Assembly: GCA_019637315.1 (NCBI GenBank)
Contig: JAHBVU010000002.1
Span: forward strand, 186,001 to 250,000
DNA from: Gemmatimonadales bacterium
GTDB lineage: Bacteria > Gemmatimonadota > Gemmatimonadetes > Gemmatimonadales > GWC2-71-9
Direction of reading: 5' to 3'
Length of the DNA stretch: 64,000 nucleotides
Below the pieces are notes generated by a model, which made no database searches, was not told the origin of the DNA, and worked only from the letters and a program-made list of their open reading frames with translations. Both the position numbers and the translations under genes were made by a program. Below are positions 3,389-21,235 of the stretch, in pieces. Positions within the stretch are counted from its first letter, which is position 1, and each line of letters begins with the position of its first letter.

Positions 3389-3442
3389 AGTGAGGTCTCC
3401 TACAATACCGCCGCCGCATTCGAGCGTCGAGAGGGGTGGGTC

Positions 3443-3470
3443 TTGACGGCTCGGTCCGGGAGCCTCCAAT
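3443..3470 (+). promoter_or_regulatory. Candidate sigma-70 promoter of the SLOG/TM gene
   Basis: TTGACG (3443-3448), 16 bases, then TCCAAT (3465-3470). The predicted start of transcription is near 3477, giving a short leader that contains GGGAGG (3486-3491), 10 bases before ATG 3502. On the opposite strand TCGACG (3430-3425) and TATTGT (3407-3402), 17 bases apart, could serve the TIR gene, but the TIR ribosome site would then lie at the transcript's 5' end, so that one is weaker. Confidence 0.42.
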
Positions 3471-3501
3471 TCTCTGGGCACTCTCGGGAGGCGTACTCGA
3501 T

Positions 3502-5478
3502 ATGCCATCAGCCCCTCCAGGCCGTCCGGTTCTGGCTTTCCGGATCGGCGTCATCGGGCATCGGTGGGACCGGCTGCAGCCGGCCGGGCCGGCCGCCGGG
3601 GTGGCCGGTCTGGCTGCCGCAGGATCGCTCGAAGCTGGGCTCGTCAATGCCGTGCAGCCCGTCCTGGCATCGCTTGCTTCGTACCTTCGGGCTCTTGCCG
3701 AGGACCCGCGCAACGGCTACCAGGTTGGCGCCGCGGCACGCCTGTCTGTCGTGTCCGGGCTGGCCGAAGGAGCCGATCGGATCGTGGCGAGAAGCGGGCT
3801 GCGGCAAGGGTACCAGCTGACAGCCGTTCTACCGTATGCCCGCGAGGAGTACCGCAAGGACTTTGACGGCAGCTGGACGGCGCCTTCCTGGTCTCGACCT
3901 GGGGCGGATACTGAGTTTGACGAGTTGCTCGGTCTGGCGACGGCAGTGATCGAAACGGACGGTGCGCCGGGTCGGTACGACGCCTACGAGCCGCTCGGTC
4001 ACGCCGTGCTCTCTCAGAGCGACATCCTCATCGTGATCTGGAACGGGCAAGGCGGGCGCGGACCGGGGGGGACGGCCAATCTGCTCGCCGAGGCACGCCG
4101 CGAGGAAATCCCCATCGTTCGGATCGATCCGAGCCGGCCGGAGCGGGTCTGGCTCGAGGAGGGCAGTCAGCCGGACGAGGGGGTTTCCCTCGGGCTTCAA
4201 GGCCTCTGGGCTCGGATCGATCGTCTCATCAAGGCACCCGACCAGTCGGGACTGAGCGGCCAGGCAGACGCCGAGGCACGCGAGGCGTTTTGGGCGGAGC
4301 GGCCGGTCCGCGGATATCTCGGAAAAGCGTTTCAACTGTTCGTCGAGCATTTCGAGCAGTTGCAGAGCCGGGCGGCGGCCGCATTCAAGCCGACGATGCC
4401 CCTATGGTTCCGGGTGATTCGTTTCTGGGGGCGCCCGCAGTTGCCAGCCGATTATACCGCAGCGGCACGGAGTGCCTGGTACGCACGTTTCGGCGGCCAG
4501 CTGGCCCCATCCGAGCTGGTGTCCCGCGTGGTGGAGCGACTCGCGCCCCTGCACGGCCGCCTCGATTTGCTCGGCCAGTACTACGCCGATCGGTACCGCT
4601 CGGCCTATACTGTGATATTCAGCTTGGCGTGGGTTGCCGCCGTTGCCGCAGTGGCTGGGCTGATTGCTCATGGCGCACACTCGCCGCTGGCCCTCGTCTT
4701 TGCCTGGCTCGAGTTGGGCGTCATTCTGGGCATCCTTGGCCTTACCTTCTGGGGCAAGCGGCGCCGGTTTCACGAGAAATGGATCGACTATCGCCTGCTT
4801 GCTGAGCAAGTTCGTCACCTCGCTTTCCTGTGGCCGATCGGGGCAACCTCATCGGCGGCGCGTCTGCCGGTCGAGCTCGCGCCCGGCGACCCGCGTGCCT
4901 GCTGGACCGGGTGGCTCTACCGGGCGCTGGTTCGGGACCTCGGCTTAGGCTTCGGGCAGTACTCCGCGGCGCACGCGGAGGCATGCAGGCGTTTCCTCCG
5001 CAGCGAAGAAATCCCGGCACAACGGGCCTATCACGCACGGCTCGCTGCTCGGTATCGCCGCGTCTCGCACGCGGTACATGTTCGGACGGACTGGCTGTTC
5101 GGAGCGGCAGCCGTCGTTGCACTGCTTCACGTCGTCGGGGCTCCGCACTGGCTGGCAGGCGGGCTCGGAGGGAGTGCGGAAGCCCTGGCTTCGCGCGAGC
5201 TGGCCCTCGCCGCCGTCCTGGCGGTTCTCTCGGTGTTCTTTCCGGCCCGGGCGGCGGCCTTACACGGCTGGGTCGGTCAATCGGACTTGTCCGCCGCGGC
5301 GCTTCGGTCAGCCGACATCGCGATTCGATTAGGCGAAGTCGAGCGGGCGATGGATGCTGCCGTCGCAACGGACAGCCGATCGCTGCGTATCGCGGCTCTT
5401 CGCGCCAGCCGGATCATGGAGAGTGAACTCGGAAACTGGCGGACGGCGTCCGTGAGCCGACCGTTGCAGCGGGTTTGA
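3502..5478 (+). CDS. SLOG-domain protein with four predicted membrane helices (SLATT-like)
   Basis: This 658-residue protein has an N-terminal SLOG/Rossmann-like domain (about 12-210): RIGVIGHRW, VVSGLAEGADRIVA, LTAVLPYAREEY, DILIVIWNGQ and GRGPGGTANLLAEA, the last being the glycine-rich ligand loop typical of SLOG proteins. A helical linker follows. A hydrophobic hairpin at about 370-389 and 396-416 with a basic exit (GKRRRFHEKW) resembles a SLATT 2TM effector. A second hydrophobic pair lies near 530-545 and 565-585, then a helical tail. SLOG domains of Thoeris ThsA bind cyclic ADP-ribose-like signals made by TIR proteins, so pairing with the divergent TIR gene suggests sensor plus membrane effector; that is inference. 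ATG 3502 has GGGAGG 10 bases upstream. Its stop lies 6 bases from the convergent esterase stop. Confidence 0.78.
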   Translation: MPSAPPGRPVLAFRIGVIGHRWDRLQPAGPAAGVAGLAAAGSLEAGLVNAVQPVLASLASYLRALAEDPRNGYQVGAAARLSVVSGLAEGADRIVARSGLRQGYQLTAVLPYAREEYRKDFDGSWTAPSWSRPGADTEFDELLGLATAVIETDGAPGRYDAYEPLGHAVLSQSDILIVIWNGQGGRGPGGTANLLAEARREEIPIVRIDPSRPERVWLEEGSQPDEGVSLGLQGLWARIDRLIKAPDQSGLSGQADAEAREAFWAERPVRGYLGKAFQLFVEHFEQLQSRAAAAFKPTMPLWFRVIRFWGRPQLPADYTAAARSAWYARFGGQLAPSELVSRVVERLAPLHGRLDLLGQYYADRYRSAYTVIFSLAWVAAVAAVAGLIAHGAHSPLALVFAWLELGVILGILGLTFWGKRRRFHEKWIDYRLLAEQVRHLAFLWPIGATSSAARLPVELAPGDPRACWTGWLYRALVRDLGLGFGQYSAAHAEACRRFLRSEEIPAQRAYHARLAARYRRVSHAVHVRTDWLFGAAAVVALLHVVGAPHWLAGGLGGSAEALASRELALAAVLAVLSVFFPARAAALHGWVGQSDLSAAALRSADIAIRLGEVERAMDAAVATDSRSLRIAALRASRIMESELGNWRTASVSRPLQRV

Positions 5479-6830: not shown

Positions 6831-7075
6831 CCGTAGCGATTCCGTGTTAAAAGGGGGATTGGGCGCCCTGCAGGTTTCGCTGATCGCAGTCGCCGAGGGG
6901 GGGAATATAGCGATGAGCGATGGTCTCGCGACCCGTCCTGATCGTGCGCGCTTCGGGGGCCCGGGATCCGCGCCGGGAACCGGGTGAAGGGCTTCCTCGG
7001 GAAAGACTAGAAGTTCAGTCGGAATTGATCGTGTAAATCCGCTCTGTATCATGAGTTATAAGCCCCGAGTTCGGG

Positions 7076-7104
7076 TTGAAGTCGTCCGGCCGCCCGGTTA
7101 GATT
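7076..7104 (+). promoter_or_regulatory. Candidate sigma-70 promoter of the nuo operon
   Basis: TTGAAG (7076-7081), 17-base spacer, TAGATT (7099-7104). The expected transcription start is near 7111, giving a leader of about 74 bases before nuoA. It lies immediately upstream of the 7113-7136 palindrome. Confidence 0.5.
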
Positions 7105-7112
7105 CCCAGGCT

Positions 7113-7136
7113 ACATCGTGAATCTTTTCACGATGT
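7113..7136. promoter_or_regulatory. Perfect palindrome at the nuo start site (CRP/FNR-like operator or leader hairpin)
   Basis: Arms ACATCGTGAA and TTCACGATGT (10 bp, no mismatch) around TCTT. Read as a protein site, it has the core GTGA-N6-TCAC, the half-site and spacing used by CRP/FNR-family regulators. Because it overlaps the predicted transcription start, a bound protein would be expected to repress. The same bases could fold as an RNA hairpin at the extreme 5' end of the nuo messenger. There is no U-tract, so an attenuator terminator is unlikely. Confidence 0.6.
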
Positions 7137-7184: not shown

Positions 7185-7550
7185 ATGCTTCGGTCGTATT
7201 CTCCCCTCCTCATTTTGATCGCCTTCGTGGCAGCAAACGCGATCATGATGCTCGGAGTGTCGCACATCTTCTCGACGTACCGTCGAACCGCCGTGAAGGT
7301 GGCGCCGTATGAGTCCGGCATTCCGGCCTTGGGCGACACGCGCGAGCGGTTCTCGGTCAAGTTCTATCTGGTCGCGATGCTGTTCATCATCTTCGACATC
7401 GAGGCCGTGTTCCTGATTCCCTGGGCTGTGGCGTTCAGCCAGTTCAAGGACATCACAGGGCTGCTGCTGATCGAGATTCTCATCTTCGTCGGGATTCTCG
7501 GTGTCGGCTATGTGTACGTGTGGAAGCGAGGTGCCTTGCAATGGGATTGA
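7185..7550 (+). CDS. nuoA: NADH-quinone oxidoreductase subunit A
   Basis: Small membrane subunit of complex I, 121 residues with three transmembrane helices. Family signatures are [37 protein letters not shown] (residues about 43-79, cited here only as landmarks: the PYESG loop and the FDIE motif) and the final helix [18 protein letters not shown]. It is the first gene of a complete nuoA-N set. ATG 7185 has only a poor ribosome site. Its stop overlaps the nuoB start. Confidence 0.96.
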
Positions 7551-8158
7551 CACTTCCCGCTGGTCACGACAGCACGGAGCTGCCGGGCGAATCCCCGAAT
7601 TACGTCGCGACCCGGCTTGATTTTCTGGTCAACTGGGCCCGGTCGAATTCGTTGTGGCCGATGCCGTTCGGCACGGCCTGTTGTGCCATCGAGTTCATGG
7701 CGACGGCGGCCGGGCGGTTCGATCTGGCGCGCTTCGGTATGGAGCGGCAGAGTTTCTCGCCGCGCCAGGCCGACGTGCTGATCTGTGCGGGGCGCTTGCC
7801 GTTCAAGCTCGCCCCGATCATTCGGCGGGTTTGGGATCAGATGCCTCAGCCCAAGTGGTCGATTTCGATGGGTGCCTGCGCGTCGAGCGGCGGTATCTTC
7901 GATACCTATTCGATGGTGCAGGGGATCGATACGATCATTCCGGTCGACGTCTATGTTCCGGGTTGCCCGCCCCGTCCTGAAGGGCTGCTTTACGGAATCA
8001 TGCTGCTCCAGAAAAAGATCATGGGCGAGGCGATGAAAGATCCCTCGCTGCGGCAGGAGTTCCTGGTCAACGACAAGGGCTTCTATATCCCGCCGGCCAA
8101 GATCGACGAGGTCTCGGAGCCGTTCGGCAACTCGGTCCACCAAACCCGCTCCGCATGA
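7541..8158 (+). CDS. nuoB: NADH-quinone oxidoreductase subunit B
   Basis: Carries the terminal N2 [4Fe-4S] cluster that passes electrons to quinone at the foot of the peripheral arm. The cluster ligands are visible: adjacent cysteines in [18 protein letters not shown] and [14 protein letters not shown] 7541 overlaps the last ten bases of nuoA; an upstream in-frame start at 7520 would extend further into nuoA and is less likely. It has 205 residues, slightly long at both ends (a short N-terminal arm and the C-terminal [14 protein letters not shown] tail). The stop overlaps the nuoC start by four bases. Confidence 0.96.
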
Positions 8159-8781
8159 CGGCTGCCCAAACCCTCGCGTCCACGATCGACGCGCTGCGTG
8201 CCGAGTTCGGCTCGGCCATTCTGTACGATACCGTGAGCTGCGGTGATACCATCGTAGGCGTCGATGCGTCTCGATTGCACGCGGTGCTGGCCTGGCTCAA
8301 AGAGACGCCGGGGCAGGATTTCAACTATCTGACCGACATCACCGCGGTCGATTACCGCGATCCCGAGCATCCGCTCGAACTGGTGTATCAGCTCCGCTCG
8401 CTGGGTCGCAAGCTGGATCTCCGGGTCAAGGTTCCGCTCGACAAGGACGGCGCGCTGACGGTGCCGTCGGTCTGGGACCTCTGGAAGGGCTGCAACTGGC
8501 TCGAGCGCGAAGTGTACGACATGTTCGGCATCCGCTTCGAGGGTCATCCCGACCTTCGTCGGATCCTGATGTGGGATACCTACGCCGAGGGGCACCCGCT
8601 GCGCAAAGACTTTCCGCTCCGCGGGAACTTCACCAGGGCGGAGCAGACTCGGCAGGCGCTGGCGGCCAACCCGGAAGCGCACTATTCGCTGGAAGAACTT
8701 TCGATCGTCGACGCCTTCGACGAACTGCCGGATGATATGAAGCGCCGGCTCGCGGCCGGGAAGCGGGGGGAAGTCCGATGA
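8155..8781 (+). CDS. nuoC: NADH-quinone oxidoreductase subunit C
   Basis: Peripheral-arm structural subunit of complex I (30-kDa homologue), 208 residues. The family region is clear: [50 protein letters not shown] and [21 protein letters not shown]. It is separate from nuoD here, unlike the fused NuoCD of E. coli. It starts at ATG 8155 within the nuoB stop and ends inside the nuoD start. Confidence 0.95.
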
Positions 8782-10064
8782 CGACGCGTACGCTCGAAGT
8801 CGCCCTTTCGACTCCCAGCATCGACCCGCAGGGCCGCCCGACCCAGCTGCCGCTCGGTGTCTCACGACAGCCTTCCGGCGATGACCTCGGCGCCGAGCAC
8901 ATGCTGGTCAACATCGGGCCGCAGCATCCGGCCACGCACGGCGTCTTGCGCCTGGTGCTCGAGCTCGACGGCGAAACGGTGATCCGGTGTATTCCGCATG
9001 TCGGCTATCTCCATTCCGGCTTCGAGAAGCTCGGTGAGTACCGCCATTACAACCAGATCATCCCACTGACCGATCGGACCGACTACTTGTCGCCGATGGC
9101 GAACAATGTCTGCCTCGCGCTGGCGGCCGAGAAACTGATGGGGATTCAGATCACGGAGCGGTGTCAGGTGCTCCGTGTGATCGCGTGCGAGATGAGCCGA
9201 ATCATCTCCCATATCGTCTGGCTGGGAACCACCGGCATCGACCTGGGCGCTTTCACGCCCTTCCTGTGGCTCTTCTACCAGCGCGAGCGGATTTACAACC
9301 TGCAGGAGGCCTGGACCGGTGCACGGCTGACGACCAGTCTGACCCGTGTCGGTGGCATGATGGCCGATGTGCCCGAGGGCTGGGAAGCCGGGCTCCGGCA
9401 GTTCTGCGACACCTTCCCGAAGACGCTCGACGAGGTCGATGCGGTGTTCAGCCGCAACTCGATCTGGTGCGGTCGGACCCAGGGCGTCGGCGTGATCGGG
9501 GCCGAAGAGGCGATCAACTACTCCCTCTCCGGCCCGATGCTCCGGGCCAGCGGCGTTGCGTACGATGTCCGCAAAGATCGCCCGTACCTCGGGTATGAGG
9601 ACTACGATTTCGACGTACCGGTCGGTGAGCACGGTGATATCTACGATCGGTACATGCTTCGGCTCGAAGAGATGTATCAGTCGACCCGGATTCTCTCGCA
9701 GGCGCTCGACAAGCTCGCTCGCCTCAAGGGGGCGCCCCTCAACGCGGAGGACCATCGGGTCATTCTGCCGCCCAAGTCGGCCGCCATGAGCGACATGGAA
9801 GCCATGATCCATCACTTCAAGCAGGTGATGGAAGGGGTTGCCGCGCCTCCGGGCGAGTGCTACATGGGCATCGAGAACCCGAAGGGCGAGCTGGGGTACT
9901 ACTTCGTCTCGGACGGAACCGCCAAGCCGGTGCGCTGGCGAATCCGGCCGCCGTCGTTCATCAACCTGGCCTGTCTGCCGCGGCTCTGCGAAGGGTCGCT
10001 CCTGGCGGACGTCATTGCCATCAACGCGAGTGTCGATATCGTGATGGGAGAGATCGACCGATGA
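8778..10064 (+). CDS. nuoD: NADH-quinone oxidoreductase subunit D
   Basis: The 49-kDa homologue, which forms the quinone pocket with NuoB. It has 428 residues. The conserved opening NIGPQHPATHGVLRLVLELDGE, HVGYLHSGFEKLGE, DRTDYLSPMANN and the C-terminal block PKGELGYYFVSDG followed by RIRPPSFINL are all present. It has an N-terminal extension of about 40 residues before the family core. It overlaps nuoC and nuoE by four bases each (ATGA). Confidence 0.96.
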   Translation: MTTRTLEVALSTPSIDPQGRPTQLPLGVSRQPSGDDLGAEHMLVNIGPQHPATHGVLRLVLELDGETVIRCIPHVGYLHSGFEKLGEYRHYNQIIPLTDRTDYLSPMANNVCLALAAEKLMGIQITERCQVLRVIACEMSRIISHIVWLGTTGIDLGAFTPFLWLFYQRERIYNLQEAWTGARLTTSLTRVGGMMADVPEGWEAGLRQFCDTFPKTLDEVDAVFSRNSIWCGRTQGVGVIGAEEAINYSLSGPMLRASGVAYDVRKDRPYLGYEDYDFDVPVGEHGDIYDRYMLRLEEMYQSTRILSQALDKLARLKGAPLNAEDHRVILPPKSAAMSDMEAMIHHFKQVMEGVAAPPGECYMGIENPKGELGYYFVSDGTAKPVRWRIRPPSFINLACLPRLCEGSLLADVIAINASVDIVMGEIDR

Positions 10065-10627
10065 GCGCTCCCGGTTCTCGGCCGGTGCTGCACCAGTTGG
10101 GTGGTGTGGCGTCGGGGCATGGACACGGACATGCTCATGCGGAGCAACCGTATGAGCCGGTTTTCGTTGGAGAGGCGCTGGCTGAACTCCAGGCCCTCTT
10201 CCCGAAGTATCCCACCAAGCGGGCTTGCCTGCTGCCGGCGCTCTGGATCGTGCAGGAGCGGCGAGGGTGGATTTCGCCGGACGCCATCGACGAGATTGGC
10301 GCCGTACTCGAGCTGTCGCCCGCGTACATTCGCGGTGTGGCGACCTTCTACACGATGTATCACCTGCATCCGGTCGGTCGACACTTCATCCAGGTCTGCG
10401 GTACCTCGCCGTGCCATCTCTGCGGGTCCGACCAGGTGCTCGAGGCCATCGTTCGCGAAACGGGCTGCGGTGAAGTCGGAGCGACCAGTCCCGACGGCCG
10501 CTTCACGGTCGTCGAGGTCGAATGCCTGGGCGCCTGCGGTTTTGCGACGCCGGTTCTGATCGACGACGACTTCCACGACAGCGTCACGCCGGAGCAGGTC
10601 CCCGGCCTGCTGGCGAGGTATTCCTAA
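10061..10627 (+). CDS. nuoE: NADH-quinone oxidoreductase subunit E
   Basis: The 24-kDa homologue with the N1a [2Fe-2S] cluster. Ligands follow the family spacing: C-x4-C in VCGTSPC and C-x3-C in ECLGACG. It has 188 residues. ATG 10061 lies in the nuoD stop; longer frames reach back into nuoD and are discarded. The N-terminus carries a His/Gly-rich run (SGHGHGHAHAE, about residues 18-28) that is not part of the fold. The stop shares one base with the nuoF start (TAATG). Confidence 0.95.
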   Translation: MSAPGSRPVLHQLGGVASGHGHGHAHAEQPYEPVFVGEALAELQALFPKYPTKRACLLPALWIVQERRGWISPDAIDEIGAVLELSPAYIRGVATFYTMYHLHPVGRHFIQVCGTSPCHLCGSDQVLEAIVRETGCGEVGATSPDGRFTVVEVECLGACGFATPVLIDDDFHDSVTPEQVPGLLARYS

Positions 10628-11934
10628 TGGGTTTTCCGCATCGTCCGCACCCCAAGGAAACGGTCGTGCTGTCCGAGTACTTCGGCGACGCCGAGGCACG
10701 GACCTACGACGGCTGGATCAAGCGGGGCGGTTATCAGGCGCTCAAGAAAGCGCTCGGCATGACGCCCGACGCGATCATCGAGGAGGTCAAAGCCTCGGGG
10801 CTGCGCGGTCGAGGCGGGGCCGGGTTTCCGACCGGACTCAAGTGGAGCTTCATGCCGAAGGGCGACGGCAAGCCCCACTACCTGGTGTGCAACGCCGACG
10901 AGTCCGAACCCGGCACCTTCAAAGACCGGGAGATCATGCGGTGGACTCCGCACCAGCTGATCGAAGGGTGCGCCATCGGGGCGTACGCGATTGGTGCGGA
11001 GCGCTGCTACATCTACATCCGGGGCGAGTTCACCGAGCCGTGGCACATCATGAGGGCCGCCGTTGCCGAAGCCTATGCGAAAGGCGCGCTCGGTGAAAAC
11101 GTCTTCGGCTCCGGTAAGCGGATCGACATCGTGCTGCATCGCGGAGCGGGCGCGTATATCTGCGGTGAAGAGACCGCGATGATGAACTCGATCGAGGGGC
11201 GACGCGGCAATCCGCGGATCAAGCCACCGTTTCCCGCCCAATCGGGCCTCTTCGGAATGCCGACGACGATCAATAACGTCGAGACCCTGACGGCGGTGAG
11301 CCATATTCTGAATCGCGGCGCTGCCTGGTACAAGGGGCTGTGCCTCAGCAATCCGAAGAGCACCGGCACCAAGCTGTTCTCGGTTTGCGGGCACGTCATG
11401 AAGCCTGGCAATTTCGAGATCACCATGGGCTTCCCGATGAAGGATCTGATTCACGATCTGGCCGGGGGCATGCGGCCGGGACGCCGGCTCAAGGCTGTCA
11501 TTCCCGGCGGTTCGTCGGTCCCGATCATGACGGCCACCGAAGCCGAAGCCGCCCTCTGCGATTATGAGGGAATCATCGAGCAGGGGTCGATGCTCGGTTC
11601 GGCCGGTTTCATCGTGATGGACGATTCGGCCGATCTCGTCTATGAGATCTACCGACTTGCCAAGTTCTATGCGCACGAGTCGTGTGCGCAGTGCACCCAG
11701 TGCCGTGAGGGCACGGCCTGGACGACCAAGATTCTGGAGCGAATCCTCAAGGGCGAGGGCAAACCAGCCGATCTCGACCTGCTGCTCGACCTGTCGGACC
11801 AGATGACGGGCAAGACGATCTGCGTGCTGAGCGACTCGTGCGCGGCGCCGATCGTCAGTGGCATCAAGAAGTTCCCTGAAGAATTTGAAGCGTACCTGAG
11901 TCGGGCCAAGGCGCCGGCCCTGGCGGGCGTATGA
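10627..11934 (+). CDS. nuoF: NADH-quinone oxidoreductase subunit F
   Basis: NADH-oxidising subunit with FMN and the N3 [4Fe-4S] cluster, 435 residues. Visible are the NADH/FMN loops GLRGRGGAGFPTGLKW and CNADESEPGTFKDRE, GAGAYICGEETAM, and the cluster motif ESCAQCTQCREGT with a later Cys in the LSDSCA region. ATG 10627 follows the nuoE stop with a one-base overlap, and the gene overlaps nuoG by four bases. Confidence 0.96.
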   Translation: MGFPHRPHPKETVVLSEYFGDAEARTYDGWIKRGGYQALKKALGMTPDAIIEEVKASGLRGRGGAGFPTGLKWSFMPKGDGKPHYLVCNADESEPGTFKDREIMRWTPHQLIEGCAIGAYAIGAERCYIYIRGEFTEPWHIMRAAVAEAYAKGALGENVFGSGKRIDIVLHRGAGAYICGEETAMMNSIEGRRGNPRIKPPFPAQSGLFGMPTTINNVETLTAVSHILNRGAAWYKGLCLSNPKSTGTKLFSVCGHVMKPGNFEITMGFPMKDLIHDLAGGMRPGRRLKAVIPGGSSVPIMTATEAEAALCDYEGIIEQGSMLGSAGFIVMDDSADLVYEIYRLAKFYAHESCAQCTQCREGTAWTTKILERILKGEGKPADLDLLLDLSDQMTGKTICVLSDSCAAPIVSGIKKFPEEFEAYLSRAKAPALAGV

Positions 11935-13496
11935 GCGAACTCGTCAACGTCACGATCGACGGTGTGTCGGTGTCCGTGCCGAAAGGCACCTCGATCATCG
12001 AAGCTGCCAAGCAGGCGGGCGTGCTGGTCCCGCACTACTGCTACCATCCGTCGCTGCCCTCGCCGGCGGTGTGCCGCATGTGCCTGGTCGAGGTCGAGAA
12101 GGCCCCCAAGCTGCTGCCGGCATGTGTTACCACGGTGGCCGACGGCAACGTAATTCACGTCAACAGCGCCGCGGCCAAAAAGGCGCGCGAGGCGGTGCTC
12201 GAGTTTCTGCTGATCAATCATCCGCTCGATTGCCCGATCTGCGATCAGGCCGGCGAATGCGAGCTCCAGAACTACGTCTTCCAGGAAGGACGGCCGGGTA
12301 CCCGCTACGCCGATTACGCCAAGCGGTTCAATCCGGTCGAGGATTTCGGCCCCGATGTGCTGTATGTGCCGAACCGCTGCATCCTCTGCACCCGTTGCGT
12401 CCGTTTCATGGAGAATGTCGCCGATGATCCGGTGCTCAACGTCTCGGAGCGGGGCGATCGCGCCTTCATCGGGATCGACCCCGACCATGTCTTGAGTCAT
12501 CCCTGGTCGGGTAACGTGGTCGACCTCTGTCCGGTCGGCTCGCTGATTTCGAAGGACTTCCTGCACAAAGCCCGGGCCTGGGATCTCGACAAGACGGCGA
12601 GCATTTGCCCGGGGTGTACTCAGGGTTGCAACATCATGGTCGACACCCGGGACGAAGTGGTGGTGCGCTTGCGGCCACGGCCCAACCTCGAGGTCAATCG
12701 CCATTTCATGTGCGATACGGGACGCCTCGACTACCGCTGGATGAACCGCGGCGATCGGATCGAGGTTCCCTTGGTGCGCGACGGGGCCCGGTTGGCCCCA
12801 ATCGATTGGGACGGGGCGATCGCGCGGCTGGCCGGGCTGGTTCGGGATGCCAAATCGATTACCGTGCTCGCGTCGGGACGGGCCTCCACCGAGGCGCTCG
12901 GCACCGTGGCGCGGCTGGTCCGCCGGGCCGATGTGACGGCAGTGGTCAAAGTGCCGACGGGCCCGGAAGCGCCGCTCGCCGGCGTGCCCGACCTGTCGCT
13001 CCGCGCCGAACGGGTTCCCAATCTCAACGGCGCCCAGTTGCTGGGGTACACGACAGCGTGGGCCGCCGGAGTGGCATCTGCGCAGCGAGCCGATCTGGTG
13101 CTCGTGCTCGATGCGGAACTCGATGAGCAGGAACTGGCCGTCGTGGCCGGTGCTCGGGCCGTCGTGCTGATCGGCACGGTCGACGACGACCGTCTCGAGC
13201 GGGCCAGTCTCGTCTTGCCGACGACCACCATGGTTGAAGAGAACGGCACTTACGTCAATCGGGATCAGCGGGTGCAGCGGTATTTCCAGGCCAAGGGTGC
13301 TCCGGGCATGGCGCGGCCGACCTGGTGGATCGGCGCGAGCGCCGCGGCCGAGCTGGACGGCGGTTCGCTGCCCGCCACGGCCGCCGATGCCTTTGCCGAG
13401 CTGACGCAGGCCGTGACTACCTTCGATGACCTCACCTATCAGGATCTCGGCTTTGTCGGCCGAGTCGTCGGCCGGACGGCGGAGGCTGCACGATGA
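11931..13496 (+). CDS. nuoG: NADH-quinone oxidoreductase subunit G (short form)
   Basis: Large Fe-S subunit of the peripheral arm. The N-terminal third holds the [2Fe-2S] ligands (CYHPSLPSPAVCRMC and PACVT), then CPICDQAGECELQ, CILCTRCVRF and VVDLCPVGSL for the [4Fe-4S] clusters. A further C-x2-C-x3-C-x27-C set beginning CPGCTQGC matches the N7 cluster found in some bacteria. The molybdopterin-oxidoreductase-like part behind it is short: the protein has 521 residues, against roughly 700-900 for many NuoG. The reading frame is intact to nuoH, so this is a natural short form rather than a frameshift. Confidence 0.93.
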   Translation: MSELVNVTIDGVSVSVPKGTSIIEAAKQAGVLVPHYCYHPSLPSPAVCRMCLVEVEKAPKLLPACVTTVADGNVIHVNSAAAKKAREAVLEFLLINHPLDCPICDQAGECELQNYVFQEGRPGTRYADYAKRFNPVEDFGPDVLYVPNRCILCTRCVRFMENVADDPVLNVSERGDRAFIGIDPDHVLSHPWSGNVVDLCPVGSLISKDFLHKARAWDLDKTASICPGCTQGCNIMVDTRDEVVVRLRPRPNLEVNRHFMCDTGRLDYRWMNRGDRIEVPLVRDGARLAPIDWDGAIARLAGLVRDAKSITVLASGRASTEALGTVARLVRRADVTAVVKVPTGPEAPLAGVPDLSLRAERVPNLNGAQLLGYTTAWAAGVASAQRADLVLVLDAELDEQELAVVAGARAVVLIGTVDDDRLERASLVLPTTTMVEENGTYVNRDQRVQRYFQAKGAPGMARPTWWIGASAAAELDGGSLPATAADAFAELTQAVTTFDDLTYQDLGFVGRVVGRTAEAAR

Positions 13497-14719
13497 TGCC
13501 CGAAACCAAGGGGCTGCTGATCCTGTCGTCCCTCAAGATGCTCGTGGTCTTCACGGTCACAATGGTCGGCGTGGCGATGATGACCTGGATGGAGCGCAAG
13601 GTCTGCTCGTGGATGCAGAATCGGCGCGGGCCCAACCGGGTCGGCTGGGCCGGTTTGCTGCAGCCTGCGGCCGATGGCCTGAAAAACATCGTCAAGGAAG
13701 AGACCTATCCGGAGGAGGCCAATCGCTTTCTCTTTATCCTCGCGCCGGCCATGGCCTTCATTCCCGCGCTGCTGCTCGGGTCGGTCATTCCGTGGGGTGC
13801 GCCGATTCAGGTCGACTTCGATTGGCAGCTCCCGTTGATCGGTGCTGTTTCGTACCACGGCTTGATGCCGCTGTCGGTGATCGATCTCCCGATCGGCTTC
13901 CTGTTCGTCTTTGCGATCGGGTCGCTGGGTGTCTACGGCATCGTGTTGGCGGGGTGGGCATCGAACAGCAAGTACAGCATGCTGGGCGGCCTCCGGGCCA
14001 CGGCCCAAATGATTTCCTACGAGGTGGCACTCGGGTTGAGCCTGGTGCCGGTGCTGCTCGTGGCCGGCAACCCGACCTTCTCCCAGGTCATCAGTTCCCA
14101 GCAGTCCGGGCCGTTTTCCTGGTTTGCGCTCCAGCTCACCGTCGCCTTCTTCGTCTTCATGGTCGCGGCGTTTGCCGAGACGAACCGGCTGCCGTTCGAC
14201 ATGCCCGAAGCGGAGTCCGAGCTGATTGCCGGGTATCACACCGAGTATTCTGCGATGAAGTTCTCGATGTTCTTCATCGCCGAGTATGCCAACATCCTGA
14301 CGATGTCGGCGATGATGGCAACGCTGTTCTTCGGCGGCTGGGATATCCCGTTTACAAGCTGGGATCAGGGCGGATCGGTGGCCGCAACGGTGGCGACGGC
14401 CGCAATGATGTTCCTCAAGACGACCTTCTTTGTGTTCTTCTTCATGTGGATCCGGTGGACGCTGCCGCGATTCCGCTATGATCAGCTGATGTCGCTCGGC
14501 TGGAAGTTCATGATCCCGCTCGCGCTGGTATACATCATTGCCGTCGCTTTGCTGATCTGGGGCGTCGAAAGTGTGGCCGGGATTACCAGCCCGCTGGTCA
14601 AGTCGCTCGTCTTCCTGGGTGTCAACGTGGTCGCGTGTTACGTGATCTTCTTCATTCTCGACCGTGGTACGCTGGTGTCGGGATCGTTCCGCCGTTCCAT
14701 CGGCACGGCGAGGGGCTGA
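13493..14719 (+). CDS. nuoH: NADH-quinone oxidoreductase subunit H
   Basis: Membrane subunit at the junction with the peripheral arm; it forms part of the quinone channel. It has 408 residues and about eight or nine helices. Family motifs include MERKVCSWMQNRRGPNRVG, LADGLKN-like QPAADGLKNIVKEE, and AFAETNRLPFDMPEAESELIAGYHTEY, the acidic quinone-site loop. It starts at ATG 13493 in the nuoG stop. A long antisense frame across it is a codon-bias shadow. Confidence 0.96.
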   Translation: MMPETKGLLILSSLKMLVVFTVTMVGVAMMTWMERKVCSWMQNRRGPNRVGWAGLLQPAADGLKNIVKEETYPEEANRFLFILAPAMAFIPALLLGSVIPWGAPIQVDFDWQLPLIGAVSYHGLMPLSVIDLPIGFLFVFAIGSLGVYGIVLAGWASNSKYSMLGGLRATAQMISYEVALGLSLVPVLLVAGNPTFSQVISSQQSGPFSWFALQLTVAFFVFMVAAFAETNRLPFDMPEAESELIAGYHTEYSAMKFSMFFIAEYANILTMSAMMATLFFGGWDIPFTSWDQGGSVAATVATAAMMFLKTTFFVFFFMWIRWTLPRFRYDQLMSLGWKFMIPLALVYIIAVALLIWGVESVAGITSPLVKSLVFLGVNVVACYVIFFILDRGTLVSGSFRRSIGTARG

Positions 14720-14723
14720 GCAT

Positions 14724-15242
14724 ATGGCGATTGGCGTCAAGGTCATGAAGCGCCCGGAGCGTGAGACGAGCTACGTCCGCGCGACGCTCAAGGGGCTGGC
14801 ATTGACCTTCAAGAGCATGTTCCGCACGAAAGTCACCATGCAGTACCCGGAAGAGCGGAGTACGGCAGATGAGCGCGGCAGCTACACGCTCTCTCCGCGG
14901 TGGCGGGGTACGCACCGGATGCTGGCGGACGAGCAAGGGCGGTCCAAATGCGTGGCTTGCGGCCTCTGTCCGCAGATCTGCCCGGCCAACTGCATCAAGC
15001 TGGTGCCCGGCGAGGACGAAGAGGGCAACCGCTACCCGCTGATCTACGAGATCGACGAGTTCCGCTGCGTTTTCTGCGGCTACTGCCAGGAAGTCTGTCC
15101 CGAAGAGGCGATTCACGTCGGGGTTCATTACGAGAATGCCGAGTACAGCCGGGACCGGTTCGTCTATGATCTCGAGCGGCTGACATCGCAGACGCATCCG
15201 GTGTCGTCGCTTTGGGATCCCGCTGATCCGCGGGGGCAGTAA
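14724..15242 (+). CDS. nuoI: NADH-quinone oxidoreductase subunit I
   Basis: TYKY homologue with two [4Fe-4S] clusters (N6a, N6b), seen as CVACGLCPQICP and CVFCGYCQEVCP. It has 172 residues. ATG 14724 was chosen: it lies 4 bases after the nuoH stop with an AGGGG site upstream, and family similarity starts here. Its stop overlaps the nuoJ start by one base. Confidence 0.96.
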   Translation: MAIGVKVMKRPERETSYVRATLKGLALTFKSMFRTKVTMQYPEERSTADERGSYTLSPRWRGTHRMLADEQGRSKCVACGLCPQICPANCIKLVPGEDEEGNRYPLIYEIDEFRCVFCGYCQEVCPEEAIHVGVHYENAEYSRDRFVYDLERLTSQTHPVSSLWDPADPRGQ

Positions 15243-15802
15243 TGGTCCAATTCGTCTTCTACACGCTGGCCGTTCTCGCCGTCTCCTCGGCGCTCCTGTG
15301 TATTACCAGGAAGAGTCCGGTGCCGGCGGCGCTATGGCTCGTCTCCACGATGTTTGCGCTGGCCGGGATCTACGTCCTGCTCAACGCGCAGTTCATCGCG
15401 GCAATGCAAGTCCTGGTGTATGCCGGCGCCATCATGGTGCTCTTTCTGTTCGTGATCATGCTGCTCAACCTCGGGCGTGGCGAGGAGTCGGATCTCAAGA
15501 AGGGGCCGATCGTCGGCGTGGCCGCGCTGCTCGGGGTTGTGTTGATTGCTGCGCTCGTTGCGGTGCGGGGCACCTCCGCTGCCAGCCTCGCTGCCGCTCT
15601 CGGCACCGTTCCCGGCGCGTCAGGGCCGGCCGCCGCACTGCCGGGCGCGGCTGAGGTCCATGCGGTTGAGTCGTTCACCAATGCGGTTGCGGCGGTGGCT
15701 TCGCCGATGTTCCGAACCTATCTCGTGCCGTTCGAGCTCACGTCCGTGCTGTTGCTGGCCGCGGCGGTGGGAGCGGTCGTGCTCGCGAAACGGAAGCTCT
15801 GA
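15242..15802 (+). CDS. nuoJ: NADH-quinone oxidoreductase subunit J
   Basis: Antiporter-module membrane subunit ND6, 186 residues and five predicted helices. The conserved segment [42 protein letters not shown] spans about residues 29-71 and includes the pi-bulge helix of ND6. A hydrophilic Ala/Gly-rich insert separates helices 4 and 5. Overlaps of one base join it to nuoI and nuoK. Confidence 0.94.
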
Positions 15803-16098
15803 TGCTCCTGGAACACTCACTCATCCTCTCGGCGATCCTCTTCACGATTGGTGTCGTGGGAGTCATGATCCGCCGCAATGCGATCGTGCTGTTCATGTGC
15901 GTCGAGCTGATGCTCAACGCGGTGAATCTCTCGTTTGTGGCGCTGTCGAACGCGCACGGCTTTACCGGTCAGGTCATGGTCTTCTTCGTCATGACGGTCG
16001 CGGCTGCCGAGGCGGCTGTTGGACTGGCCATTATTCTCGCGATCTTCCGGCATACCCGGTCGGTTGACCTCAAGACCATGAACCTGCTGCAAGGCTGA
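15802..16098 (+). CDS. nuoK: NADH-quinone oxidoreductase subunit K
   Basis: ND4L homologue: 98 residues, three helices. The membrane glutamates needed for proton transfer in the family are visible in [11 protein letters not shown] and [10 protein letters not shown]. The start ATG 15802 and the stop overlap the neighbours by one base each. Confidence 0.96.
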
Positions 16099-18074
16099 TG
16101 AATCCCTCCTGGATTTGGCTGACCATCGCGCTTCCGTTCGCCGGGTTCCTGGTGAATGGCACGCTCGCCCTGGTCAAGCCTGACGCGAAGCGGCTGGTCA
16201 CGCTCGTCGGCCCCGGTGTGCTGCTGGCGGCGTTTGCCGTCGCGGCATCAGTGTTCGTCGGCTACGCCGGACAGCCGGCTCAAGGCCCGGTGATCGTGAC
16301 GCTGTGGACCTGGATCGCAACCGGCGCCCTCGATCTTGGCCTCTCTCTGCAGGTCGACCAGCTCTCACTCGTGATGCTGCTGGTCATCACGGGCGTCGGC
16401 AGTCTGATCCACATCTTCAGCGTCGGCTACATGTCGTCGGATCCCGGGTACGCCAAGTTCTTCGCGTACCTCAATCTGTTCGTCGTGTTCATGCTGGTGC
16501 TGGTGCTGGGGTCGAGTCTGCCGGTGCTGTTTATCGGCTGGGAGGGCGTCGGCCTCTGTTCCTACCTGCTGATCGGCTTCTGGTACCAGGACAAGGCCAA
16601 CGCAGACGCGGGCAAGAAGGCGTTCATCGTCAACCGGATTGGCGACCTGGGCGTTCTGATTGCGATGTTCCTGATTTTCTGGTCGCTGGGTACCCTGGAG
16701 TTCCGCGAAATCGCCGAGCGGGCGCCGGGTGGCCTGCTGGTCGGCGGCGGCGTGGTCACTGCGATTACGCTCTTTCTGTTCCTGGGCTGCACCGGCAAGT
16801 CGGCGCAGATTCCGCTCTTTACCTGGCTGCCGGACGCCATGGCGGGTCCGACCCCGGTCTCCGCGCTGATCCATGCGGCCACGATGGTCACGGCCGGTGT
16901 GTACCTGATTGCCCGGACCAGTGTTCTGTTCGCGATGGCTCCGTTGTCGAGCACCGTGGTGGCTGGTGTCGGTGCGCTGACCGCCCTCTTTGCGGCGTCG
17001 ATTGCGTTGCGGCAGTACGACATCAAGAAAGTCCTGGCCTATTCGACGGTCTCCCAGCTGGGCTACATGTTCATGGGAGTCGGGTCGGCCGCGTATACGG
17101 CCGGCGTGTTCCATCTGGTGACCCACGCATTCTTCAAGGCGCTTCTCTTCCTCGGATCGGGCAGCGTGATCTACGCCATGCACCATGCGTATCATGCGAC
17201 CCACAGTCACGATGATGCGCAGGACATGCGGAACATGGGCGGTCTCAAGAAGTACATGCCGGCCACCTTCATCCTGATGCTGCTGGCAACGCTGGCGATT
17301 GCCGGCGTTCCGCCCTTCTCAGGCTTCTTCTCCAAGGACGAGATCCTCGCGACTGCCTTCGGTCGCGCGGCCGAGAATCCGATCTACTATGTGTTCTGGG
17401 CCATGGGTGCGCTGGCGGCACTGCTCACAGCGTTCTACATGATGCGGCTTGTCGCGATGACGTTCCTGGGCGACAACCGCACTGGCGCGAAGGAGCGTGA
17501 GCATCTGCACGAGGCGCCGGGGGTCATGACCGGTCCCCTGGTCGTGCTGGCGATCCTGGCGGTCATCGGCGGTGTGCTCAACCTGCCGGCCTTCTGGCCG
17601 ACGGGTCCGCACCACGTGCTCGAGAGCTGGCTCGAGCCGGTCCTGGCGCCCGCCACCGTGTTCATGCAGGCGCAGCATCCGCATGGCGCGGTCGAGTACA
17701 TCCTGATCGGTTTGGCCATCGTGATCGCGGCGGCCGGACTCTACGCGGGCTATCGGACGACGCTTGCGAAGCCGATTCCGGTGGCGAAAGAGGCCCCGGA
17801 AGAAGTCGGCTTTGCCAAGGTCCTCTTCAACAAGTATTACGTCGACGAGATCTACCAGGCGCTCATCGTTCGGCCTCTCGTGGGCGGCTCACGGTATCTG
17901 CTCTGGAAGTTCTTCGATCAGGGCGTCATCGACGGCCTGGGTGTCAATGGTTCCGGCGGGTTGGCCCGCGGGATCGGCTGGCTGGGCAGTCGGCTGCAGA
18001 CCGGCCAGCTCGGCTTCTACGTCCTTGTATTTGTGGTCGGCGCCGTCTGGCTCCTCCACGCCGTGAACCGGTAA
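16098..18074 (+). CDS. nuoL: NADH-quinone oxidoreductase subunit L
   Basis: Distal proton-pumping antiporter subunit (ND5), 658 residues. The conserved middle is present: WEGVGLCSYLLIGFWY, KAFIVNRIGDLG, TGKSAQIPLFTWLPDAM, PTPVSALIHAATMVTAGVYL and KKVLAYSTVSQLGYM. The C-terminal part (about 520-658) carries the long lateral helix and last transmembrane helix. ATG 16098 shares a base with the nuoK stop. Confidence 0.96.
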   Translation: MNPSWIWLTIALPFAGFLVNGTLALVKPDAKRLVTLVGPGVLLAAFAVAASVFVGYAGQPAQGPVIVTLWTWIATGALDLGLSLQVDQLSLVMLLVITGVGSLIHIFSVGYMSSDPGYAKFFAYLNLFVVFMLVLVLGSSLPVLFIGWEGVGLCSYLLIGFWYQDKANADAGKKAFIVNRIGDLGVLIAMFLIFWSLGTLEFREIAERAPGGLLVGGGVVTAITLFLFLGCTGKSAQIPLFTWLPDAMAGPTPVSALIHAATMVTAGVYLIARTSVLFAMAPLSSTVVAGVGALTALFAASIALRQYDIKKVLAYSTVSQLGYMFMGVGSAAYTAGVFHLVTHAFFKALLFLGSGSVIYAMHHAYHATHSHDDAQDMRNMGGLKKYMPATFILMLLATLAIAGVPPFSGFFSKDEILATAFGRAAENPIYYVFWAMGALAALLTAFYMMRLVAMTFLGDNRTGAKEREHLHEAPGVMTGPLVVLAILAVIGGVLNLPAFWPTGPHHVLESWLEPVLAPATVFMQAQHPHGAVEYILIGLAIVIAAAGLYAGYRTTLAKPIPVAKEAPEEVGFAKVLFNKYYVDEIYQALIVRPLVGGSRYLLWKFFDQGVIDGLGVNGSGGLARGIGWLGSRLQTGQLGFYVLVFVVGAVWLLHAVNR

Positions 18075-18083
18075 GGCCGCGCC

Positions 18084-19649
18084 ATGGAAAACTTTCTCGA
18101 CTCGATCGGGTACAACACCTGGATCCTGCACGCGCTGCTGCTGGTTCCGGCGCTGGCCGCGATTCCCGTCTTCCTGAGCACTCCGGCACTGGCCAAGCGG
18201 CTCGCGTTGCTGGTCACGGTCGTGGAACTGGTGCTGTCGCTCGGCCTCTGGTGGTCCGTCGACACCAGCACCGGAACCATGGAACTCGTGTCCACCGTGT
18301 CGTGGATTCCACAGTGGGGGATTTCCTACGCCGTCGGGATCGACGGCATCTCCCTCATGATGGTGCTGTTGAGCACCCTCCTGATGCCGCTCTGTGTGCT
18401 GGGCAGCTACAACTACATCACCCAGCGCGAGCCCGCGTATTACGCGCTGCTGCTGATCCTCACCACGGGAATGATCGGTGTGTTCGTCGCCACCGACATG
18501 TTCCTGTTCTATGTGTTCTGGGAAGTCATGCTGATCCCGATGTACTTCCTGATCGGGATCTGGGGCGGCAAGAACCGGCTCTACGCCACCCTCAAGTTTT
18601 TCATCTACACCATGGCGGGCTCGCTGCTCATGCTGGTGGCGATCATCGTGATGGTCCGGATCGCGGCCGTCTCGAGTGGCACCGTCTCGTTCTCATACTT
18701 CCATCTCCTGCAGTACTCGACCGGGGCGGCCATGACCCGGGCGGCGCCGCTGTTGTTCCTGGCGTTCTTCCTGGCGTTTGCCATCAAGGTGCCGATCTTC
18801 CCGTTTCACACCTGGCTGCCTGATGCGCACGTCGAGGCGCCAACCGCCGGGTCGGTCATTCTGGCCAGCGTCCTGCTCAAGATGGGAACCTACGGATTCC
18901 TGCGCTTTGCGATTCCGTTCTTCCCGAGCGTGGCCTTCAGTGACTTCGTGACTTCGACGGTCGTCACGCTTGCGGTCATAGGGATCATCTACGGCGCGCT
19001 CGTCGCCATGGTCCAACCCGACATCAAGAAACTGGTGGCCTACTCCTCAGTCAGTCATCTCGGCTTCGTCATGCTCGGGATCTGGGCTGCGTCGGTGCAG
19101 GGCGTCCAGGGCGCCTTGATGGTCATGATCGGTCATGGTTTCTCGACAGGCGCGCTCTTCTTCCTGATCGGCATGCTGTACGAGCGCAGGCACACGCGGG
19201 AAATCAGCGACTACGGCGGCATTGCCAAGGTGGTGCCAGTCTTCAGTATCCTGCTGACCCTGGTTGCGCTGGCGTCGATCGGACTGCCTGGACTCAACGG
19301 CTTCGTTGGCGAGTTCCTCGTTCTGGTCGGCTCGTTCAAGGCGTTTCCGATCGCCACAGGTCTGGCCACGACGGGCGTCATTTTCGCTGCGGCGTATCTG
19401 TTGTGGGCGCTGCAGCGGATGATCTTCAATCCGCTCGACAAGCCGGCCAATCAATCGATTCGGGATCTCGATCGGCGCGAACTGCTGGTTCTCGCACCCC
19501 TCATCCTCGGCATTATCTGGATGGGCCTCTATCCGAAGCCCGTGCTCGACCGGATGGAACCCGCGGCGAAGCAGTACATTATGCGCGCCAAGGGCGGTGC
19601 CCCGATCGACGGCGCGCAGCCGATTACCGTTGGGAGCGTAAACCGATGA
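18084..19649 (+). CDS. nuoM: NADH-quinone oxidoreductase subunit M
   Basis: Proton-pumping antiporter subunit ND4, 521 residues. Family motifs: VGIDGISLMMVLLST, FYVFWEVMLIPMYFLIGIWGG (residues about 146-166), KVPIFPFHTWLPDAHVEAPT, SVILASVLLKMGTYG and KKLVAYSSVSHLGFV. The start is ATG 18084, 9 bases after nuoL; the stop lies in the nuoN start. Confidence 0.96.
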   Translation: MENFLDSIGYNTWILHALLLVPALAAIPVFLSTPALAKRLALLVTVVELVLSLGLWWSVDTSTGTMELVSTVSWIPQWGISYAVGIDGISLMMVLLSTLLMPLCVLGSYNYITQREPAYYALLLILTTGMIGVFVATDMFLFYVFWEVMLIPMYFLIGIWGGKNRLYATLKFFIYTMAGSLLMLVAIIVMVRIAAVSSGTVSFSYFHLLQYSTGAAMTRAAPLLFLAFFLAFAIKVPIFPFHTWLPDAHVEAPTAGSVILASVLLKMGTYGFLRFAIPFFPSVAFSDFVTSTVVTLAVIGIIYGALVAMVQPDIKKLVAYSSVSHLGFVMLGIWAASVQGVQGALMVMIGHGFSTGALFFLIGMLYERRHTREISDYGGIAKVVPVFSILLTLVALASIGLPGLNGFVGEFLVLVGSFKAFPIATGLATTGVIFAAAYLLWALQRMIFNPLDKPANQSIRDLDRRELLVLAPLILGIIWMGLYPKPVLDRMEPAAKQYIMRAKGGAPIDGAQPITVGSVNR

Positions 19650-21148
19650 ACGGCCTCGACCTCGCGACGCCCGCCGGTGTGATGCTGGCGCTGTTGCCGG
19701 AACTCGTCGTCATTGCTGCAAGCCTGGTCGTGCTGCTCGTCAACGCCTGGCGGCATCAGACGGCTGCCGACTCGCGATTGGCAGGCTGGATCTCCCTGAC
19801 CGGGATCGTGGCGGCCCTAGCGGCCCTGGCGGCGCTCTGGCAGTCGGGAGCGACCCCGATCGGTCCGCCCCATATGATTGCGCTGGATGGGTATCGCTTT
19901 GCCGCTCTGGCCATCATTCTCGTGGCCAGCGCCGGGACCATTCTGCTCTCGCTCGACTACAACGAGCGCGAGTCGCTGATCGCGCCGGAGTACTATGCCC
20001 TCCTGCTGATGGCAACGGCAGGGATGATGTTCCTGGCCGGCGCCGAGGACCTGATCGTCTTCTTCCTCGGGCTCGAGGTGATGTCGATTCCGGTGTATGT
20101 CCTGGCGGCATTCAATCGGCGCAGCGTGGTCTCCGCAGAGTCCGGCCTCAAGTACTTCCTCGTCGGAGCCATCGCATCGGCCTTCCTTTTGTACGGCATC
20201 GCCCTGATCTACGGGGCGACCGGATCGACGGCCTTGACCGCCATCGGGGCCAGTATCGCCACACACGGTGTAACGCCGCTTGCTGCGATTGGCATCGCGC
20301 TGGCCCTGGTCGGGATGGGCTTCAAAGTCGCCTCGGTTCCCTTCCACATGTGGGCCCCGGACGTCTATGACGGGGCGCCCACGCCGGTCACCGCCTATAT
20401 GGCCACTGCGGTCAAGGCCGCGGCCTTCATTGCGTTGGTTCGCCTCCTGATGGTCGGCTTCGGCACCGAAATCGACAGCTGGCAGCCGCTGGTTGGCGGG
20501 CTGGCGGCCGCGTCGATGATCCTGGGCAACCTGGTGGCGCTGGCGCAGCGGTCACTCAAGCGCATGCTCGCCTACAGCTCCATTGCACATGCGGGCTACA
20601 TCCTTGCCGCGATCTGGACCGGCAGCCAGGCTGGTGCAAGCGCCACGTTGCTCTATCTTGCGGCGTATGTCATCACCAGCCTCGTCACCTTCGGGATCCT
20701 GAGCGTGCTGGGCCGCGGGGGCGAGCGCGAAGTCACGCTTGACTCGATTGCCGGTCTGGCGGCGCAGCGGCCGGGGGTCGCTTTTGCGCTCAGCGTGGCG
20801 ATGTTCTCTCTGCTCGGTTTTCCCGGTACCTTCGGCTTTATCGGGAAGTGGGCAATTCTGTCAGCCGTGGTGGCGGAACATCAGTATTTCCTGGCCGTCA
20901 TTCTGGTGCTCACCAGTATCGTGTCGGTCGGCTATTACCTTCCGGTGGTGCGGGCGATCTACATGAAGTCGCCGGTCACGACCGATCAGCACGATCATGT
21001 CAGGCTGCCGGCCCCGGTTCGCTGGACGGTCGCCGTTGGCGTGGTCCTGGTCTTGCTCTTCGGTGTGCTGCCTGGCTCGGTGATTCAGAGCTCGGATACC
21101 AGCGCCAAGTCGTTTGCCGGTACGGCCTTGGATCGCGTCAGCAAATAG
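19646..21148 (+). CDS. nuoN: NADH-quinone oxidoreductase subunit N
   Basis: Third antiporter-like subunit (ND2), 500 residues and last gene of the operon. Motifs: EYYALLLMATAGMMFL, FFLGLEVMSIPVYVLAAF, GMGFKVASVPFHMWAPDVYDGAPTPVTAYM (about residues 231-260), and KRMLAYSSIAHAGYIL. ATG 19646 overlaps the nuoM stop (ATGA); upstream in-frame starts lie in nuoM. A GC-rich hairpin follows the stop. Confidence 0.96.
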   Translation: MNGLDLATPAGVMLALLPELVVIAASLVVLLVNAWRHQTAADSRLAGWISLTGIVAALAALAALWQSGATPIGPPHMIALDGYRFAALAIILVASAGTILLSLDYNERESLIAPEYYALLLMATAGMMFLAGAEDLIVFFLGLEVMSIPVYVLAAFNRRSVVSAESGLKYFLVGAIASAFLLYGIALIYGATGSTALTAIGASIATHGVTPLAAIGIALALVGMGFKVASVPFHMWAPDVYDGAPTPVTAYMATAVKAAAFIALVRLLMVGFGTEIDSWQPLVGGLAAASMILGNLVALAQRSLKRMLAYSSIAHAGYILAAIWTGSQAGASATLLYLAAYVITSLVTFGILSVLGRGGEREVTLDSIAGLAAQRPGVAFALSVAMFSLLGFPGTFGFIGKWAILSAVVAEHQYFLAVILVLTSIVSVGYYLPVVRAIYMKSPVTTDQHDHVRLPAPVRWTVAVGVVLVLLFGVLPGSVIQSSDTSAKSFAGTALDRVSK

Positions 21149-21161
21149 CGGAGGGCCGGAT

Positions 21162-21184
21162 GGGGCGGGCATCAGGCCCGCCCC
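21162..21184 (+). terminator. GC-rich hairpin behind nuoN
   Basis: Arms GGGGCGGGC (21162-21170) and GCCCGCCCC (21176-21184) with loop ATCAG: nine perfect GC-rich pairs, 13 bases after the nuoN stop. There is no U-tract behind it, so it may stall polymerase, protect the 3' end or act with Rho rather than be a standard intrinsic terminator. Confidence 0.5.
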
Positions 21185-21235
21185 ACGCCCCGACCTCCCG
21201 CACGACCTGTTACTTGCGGGGGTGAGCACCGTTCC

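What the first reader, a model, noticed from the sequence alone, without database searches (positions are those of the whole stretch)
7113..7136. Perfect CRP/FNR-like palindrome sitting on the predicted start site of the nuo operon
Ten perfectly paired bases per arm, core GTGA-N6-TCAC, starting 8 bases after a plausible -10 box (TAGATT). A CRP/FNR-family regulator bound there would be expected to repress complex I, linking a 14-gene operon to redox or cyclic-nucleotide signals. The same bases would also give a stable 5' hairpin to the messenger.
Basis: partly seen in the sequence, partly recalled or inferred. Interest (0 to 1): 0.6.

Follow-up and report, generated by a model that had tools for sequence, protein, structure and literature searches.

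The report
Rex operator controlling complex I genes
The palindrome is almost certainly a docking site for Rex, a repressor that senses the NADH/NAD+ balance; it sits on the start of the complex I operon of a Gemmatimonadota bacterium, and matching sites before its ATP synthase and other respiratory genes suggest that much of the respiratory chain answers to one redox sensor.

Summary
The palindrome is real: ACATCGTGAA-TCTT-TTCACGATGT at 7113-7136, just downstream of a sigma70-like promoter (TTGAAG-N17-TAGATT) and 48 bp before nuoA of a 14-gene nuo operon. The CRP/FNR reading does not hold. The conserved core is GTGAA-N4-TTCAC, the operator of Rex (consensus TTGTGAANNNNTTCACAA), the NADH/NAD+-sensing repressor. 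The genome has one rex gene. All six genome sites within two mismatches of the consensus precede rex, nuo, two atp operons, an alternative complex III-type operon or a cupredoxin gene. In sampled genomes of the same class the nuoA operator is present in 68 of 76 with rex and 2 of 14 without, while CRP-family proteins persist in 11 of 12 genomes lacking both. Rex sites precede rex in 30 of 30 loci. The nuo promoter lies at a near-fixed distance upstream of the operator, so Rex should block transcription until NADH releases it (inferred). Outer palindrome pairs do not covary, which argues against a conserved mRNA hairpin. Rex control of nuo and atp is known in Streptomyces; this is a new, strongly supported instance in a phylum for which the library searched held no report.

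The parts
7116..7133 (.). Rex operator TCGTGAATCTTTTCACGA (palindrome extends to 7113-7136)
   Evidence: 2 mismatches to TTGTGAANNNNTTCACAA; conserved in 68 of 76 rex+ genomes
7076..7081 (+). probable -35 box TTGAAG
   Evidence: read; TTGAA kept at this place in several family members
7099..7104 (+). probable -10 box TAGATT
   Evidence: starts 19 bp before the operator core; 50 of 56 genomes with a recognisable promoter have the -10 box 17-27 bp before it
7110..7112 (+). predicted transcription start of nuo (inference from the -10 box)
   Evidence: inference; not mapped
7185..7550 (+). nuoA, first gene of the controlled operon
7185..21148 (+). nuoA-N operon (14 genes), the controlled target

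Best explanation
The palindrome is the operator of Rex, the NADH/NAD+-sensing winged-helix repressor, placed immediately downstream of the -10 box of the nuo promoter. When NADH/NAD+ is low, a Rex dimer (apo or NAD+-bound) binds and sterically blocks RNA polymerase. When NADH accumulates (low oxygen or excess reductant), NADH-bound Rex leaves the DNA and nuo is derepressed, together with the ATP synthase operons, an alternative complex III-type operon, a cupredoxin electron carrier and rex itself. Shown here: motif identity, presence of Rex with conserved DNA-contact residues, conservation of the operator, its co-occurrence with rex, its near-fixed place relative to the promoter, and a coherent set of targets. 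Inferred from characterised Rex proteins: repression and release by NADH. There are no binding or expression data for this organism.
For: (1) One Rex gene in the genome (PF06971 E 3.5e-18; NCBIfam NF003995 E 1.5e-76; PDB Rex 5zz5 E 3.8e-47). Of the 12 DNA-contact residues listed for T. maritima Rex (PMC8836258), 11, including Arg48 and Lys49, are identical in the alignment; Lys43 is the exception. (2) Six sites in 3.9 Mb lie within 2 mismatches of the Rex consensus, about 1.9 expected from base composition, and all six stand upstream of rex or energy genes: rex, nuoA, actA-like, cupredoxin, atpZ-I-B, atpA. (3) nuoA operator in 67 of 75 rex+ and 3 of 15 rex- genomes, Fisher p 1.5e-7; one search finds a rex fragment in one of the three, giving 68/76 vs 2/14. 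Shuffled upstreams reach <=1 mismatch in about 0.8%. (4) Site upstream of rex in 30 of 30 loci and of atpA in 19 of 19 genomes of the same order; cupredoxin site in 8 relatives and a cydA site in one. (5) -10 box 17-27 bp before the operator core in 50 of 56 genomes, about 1 expected. (6) S. avermitilis Rex protects the same motif at nuoA1, atpI, cydA1 and rex, and NADH weakens binding (PMC5355995).
Against: The nuo operator departs from the consensus by one base per half, and relatives keep a non-consensus outer base (A or C rather than T before GTGAA in 64 of 70), so affinity may be lower than at rex. Eight rex+ genomes lack a recognisable nuoA site and two genomes without a detected rex keep it. 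Co-occurrence counts are not corrected for shared ancestry, although losses fall in several genera and families. In the window itself a different promoter-like pair (7025-7052) scores one match higher than the one next to the operator. No experiment in this lineage.
Confidence: 0.94

Rival explanations
1. The palindrome is a CRP/FNR-family operator; a cyclic-nucleotide or oxygen/redox sensor of that family binds it and represses nuo.
For: Core GTGA-N6-TCAC is shared with CRP sites; the genome has two clear CRP/FNR-type proteins plus weaker matches.
Against: Inner AA-N4-TT is conserved (66 and 70 of 70 at the inner A and T positions) while the T before GTGA required by the CRP consensus is A or C in 64 of 70 relatives. 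The site is missing in rex- genomes that keep CRP-type genes. The same motif precedes rex in 30 of 30 loci.
Confidence: 0.03
2. The palindrome acts in the transcript: a stable 5' hairpin that protects the nuo mRNA or controls translation.
For: Predicted to fold, with the whole 90-nt leader at z -2.85.
Against: In 70 relatives the pairs outside GTGAA/TTCAC are complementary no more often than column composition predicts; the same motif occurs at other promoters; no Rfam match.
Confidence: 0.02
3. Chance inverted repeat without function.
For: The bare core is expected about once per 64 kb.
Against: Conserved as an island in otherwise unconserved upstream DNA across the class.
Confidence: 0.005

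Closest known systems
Rex operators (ROP) of Streptomyces avermitilis nuoA1-N1, atpIBEFHAGDC, cydA1B1CD and rex (PMC5355995)
   Same: Same consensus TTGTGAANNNNTTCACAA and same core targets (nuo, atp, rex; cydA in one relative here), operator at the promoter.
   Different: S. avermitilis nuoA1 and atpI operators overlap the -35 region and spacer; here the nuo operator lies just downstream of the -10 box, as at S. avermitilis cydA1. rex stands next to rsmA here, not in a hem operon. An alternative complex III-type operon and a cupredoxin join the target list.
Rex of Thermotoga maritima (PDB 5zz5, 7wb3; PMC8836258)
   Same: Homologous over nearly the whole protein; recognition-helix Arg/Lys and wing Arg-Gly conserved.
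   Different: T. maritima targets are in carbohydrate metabolism and hydrogen production; here they are respiratory genes.
E. coli-type CRP site (TGTGA-N6-TCACA) and FNR site (TTGAT-N4-ATCAA) (own knowledge)
   Same: Shares GTGA-N6-TCAC with CRP sites.
   Different: Conserved inner AA-N4-TT, no conserved T before GTGA, and co-occurrence with rex rather than with CRP-family genes.

Membership tests
Rex operator | Match to TTGTGAANNNNTTCACAA | tested here: met
   TCGTGAATCTTTTCACGA, 2 mismatches; the S. avermitilis study searched with up to 3 mismatches
Rex operator | Genome encodes Rex with conserved DNA-contact residues | tested here: met
Rex operator | Site co-occurs with rex across genomes | tested here: met
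   68/76 vs 2/14, not corrected for phylogeny
Rex operator | Autoregulatory site at rex | tested here: met
   own genome and 30 of 30 rex loci
Rex operator | Located at a promoter where binding would block transcription | tested here: met
   near-fixed spacing to a sigma70-like promoter in relatives
Rex operator | Binds Rex in vitro and is released by NADH | not testable with these tools
   needs gel shift or footprint
CRP operator | TGTGA-N6-TCACA, T and A flanking the core | tested here: not met
   CGTGA...TCACG in the window; A or C before GTGA in 64 of 70 relatives
CRP operator | Site tracks a CRP/FNR protein | tested here: not met
   CRP-type genes present in own genome but also in 11 of 12 genomes without the site
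FNR operator | TTGAT-N4-ATCAA | tested here: not met
   sequence

The most novel reading that the evidence does not exclude
Across Gemmatimonadota one Rex regulon covers much of the respiratory chain (complex I, an alternative complex III-type operon, a cupredoxin carrier, cytochrome bd in some, ATP synthase), with target-specific operator versions conserved across the class: symmetric TTGTGAA at rex, TTGTGAT at atpA, and a version with non-consensus outer bases at nuo. That would give a graded order of derepression as NADH rises.
Probability: 0.35. Interest if true: 0.5.

Novelty: new member of a known kind. Interest (0 to 1): 0.4.

Why it matters
It corrects the regulator family and gives a specific, testable wiring diagram for energy metabolism in Gemmatimonadota, a phylum known mostly from metagenome assemblies. 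It extends the Streptomyces-type Rex regulon (nuo, atp, rex) to another phylum and suggests an alternative complex III-type operon and a cupredoxin as targets. Conserved operator differences between targets offer a natural data set for asking whether Rex control is graded.

Tried and rejected
CRP/FNR operator: rejected on motif shape and co-occurrence. RNA hairpin or known RNA family: no Rfam match, no covariation. Terminator: none found at the site. Site C22:5455 (exact GTGAA-N4-TTCAC) lies inside an ORF and its flanks depart from the consensus; treated as chance. Conservation of the actA-like operator in relatives is patchy, so that target is less secure than rex, nuo and atpA. The main comparative paper on Rex regulons (Ravcheev et al. 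2012) is not held. A first Pfam call failed on wrong coordinates for one protein and was repeated.

Full report
Observation. The 24-bp inverted repeat at 7113-7136 is exactly as described. Perfect arms of 10 bp with a short loop occur twice in the window and 0-1 times in Markov controls, while the bare core GTGA-N6-TCAC is expected about once. Statistics inside the window alone would not settle the matter; comparison with relatives does.

Identity. Read as GTGAA-N4-TTCAC, the site matches the operator of Rex, whose consensus TTGTGAANNNNTTCACAA was found and footprinted at nuoA1, atpI, cydA1 and rex of Streptomyces avermitilis (PMC5355995). The window lies in a 3.9-Mb genome whose nearest named nuoB relatives are Gemmatimonadota assemblies (83% identity). 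That genome has a single Rex gene directly downstream of an rsmA-type gene. In the alignment to T. maritima Rex, 11 of the 12 DNA-contact residues listed in PMC8836258 are identical.

Regulon in the same genome. Six sites lie within two mismatches of the consensus, against about 1.9 expected from base composition. They stand before rex, nuoA, an operon of a multihaem cytochrome and a molybdopterin-type iron-sulphur protein that resembles alternative complex III (QrcA/QrcB-like in NCBIfam; the name alternative complex III is my inference from gene content), a plastocyanin-like cupredoxin lipoprotein, an atpZ-atpI-like-atpB operon and atpA.

Relatives. Among 80 named relatives found through nuoB, most carry GTGAA-N4-TTCAC about 20-75 bp before nuoA. 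In a sample of genomes of the same class the site (at most one mismatch) is present in 67 of 75 with a detected Rex domain and in 3 of 15 without, Fisher p 1.5e-7. A search with the full-length protein found a rex fragment in one of the three exceptions, so the count becomes 68 of 76 against 2 of 14. The other two exceptions belong to genera in which other sampled members have rex, so an assembly gap is possible (inference). These counts are not corrected for phylogeny. CRP-type HTH matches remain in 11 of 12 genomes that lack both rex and the site, 6 of them over the family cut-off. The rex gene carries the site in 30 of 30 loci and atpA in 19 of 19 genomes of the same order. The cupredoxin gene carries it in eight family members and cydA in one.

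Mechanism. In 50 of the 56 genomes with a recognisable sigma70-type promoter, the -10 box starts 17-27 bp before the operator core, where about one is expected. In the window the pair TTGAAG-N17-TAGATT puts it at 19 bp, although another pair further upstream scores one match higher. The predicted start is therefore about 7110-7112 and the operator covers the first transcribed bases, a position that would block initiation or early elongation. Repression at low NADH/NAD+ and release by NADH are inferred from characterised Rex proteins (PMC5355995, PMC8836258, PMC6125430).

Hairpin. The transcript is predicted to fold at its 5' end, but in 70 relatives the pairs outside GTGAA/TTCAC are complementary no more often than column composition predicts. 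The conserved unit is the protein-binding site.

Operator variants. The base before GTGAA is T in nearly all rex and atpA operators, but A or C in 64 of 70 nuo operators. This may tune affinity; it is untested.

Novelty. Rex control of nuo and atp is known. A Gemmatimonadota regulon with an alternative complex III-type operon and a cupredoxin was not found in the library searched, but the main comparative paper on Rex was not held, so priority is not claimed. I file this as a new member of a known kind.

Noticed in passing
L335 (G103:C87); L329, L330, L333, L337, L338, L339, L344, L345: Other apparent Rex targets in family members: cydA (cytochrome bd) in one genome and a cupredoxin lipoprotein in eight.
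   Followed up: partly
nuo operators of relatives: Outer bases of nuo operators are consistently non-consensus (A or C before GTGAA), unlike rex and atpA operators.
   Followed up: partly
window 21161-21185: Second perfect 10-bp inverted repeat, G+C rich, 12 bp after the last nuo gene and without a T-run; possibly a terminator or transcript-end structure.
   Followed up: no
G000:C7:154428-155723: A second F-type ATPase alpha subunit (53% identical to the first) in the same genome.
   Followed up: no
window 3436-5478: 680-aa protein with SLATT-domain matches below the curated cut-off.
   Followed up: no
G144, G027, G126 and loci L039, L041, L043, L055: Family members or close relatives whose nuoA upstream has no recognisable Rex site (G144, G027 and G126 have rex); in several the best partial match lies about 275-430 bp upstream, apparently inside the neighbouring dcd gene.
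   Followed up: no
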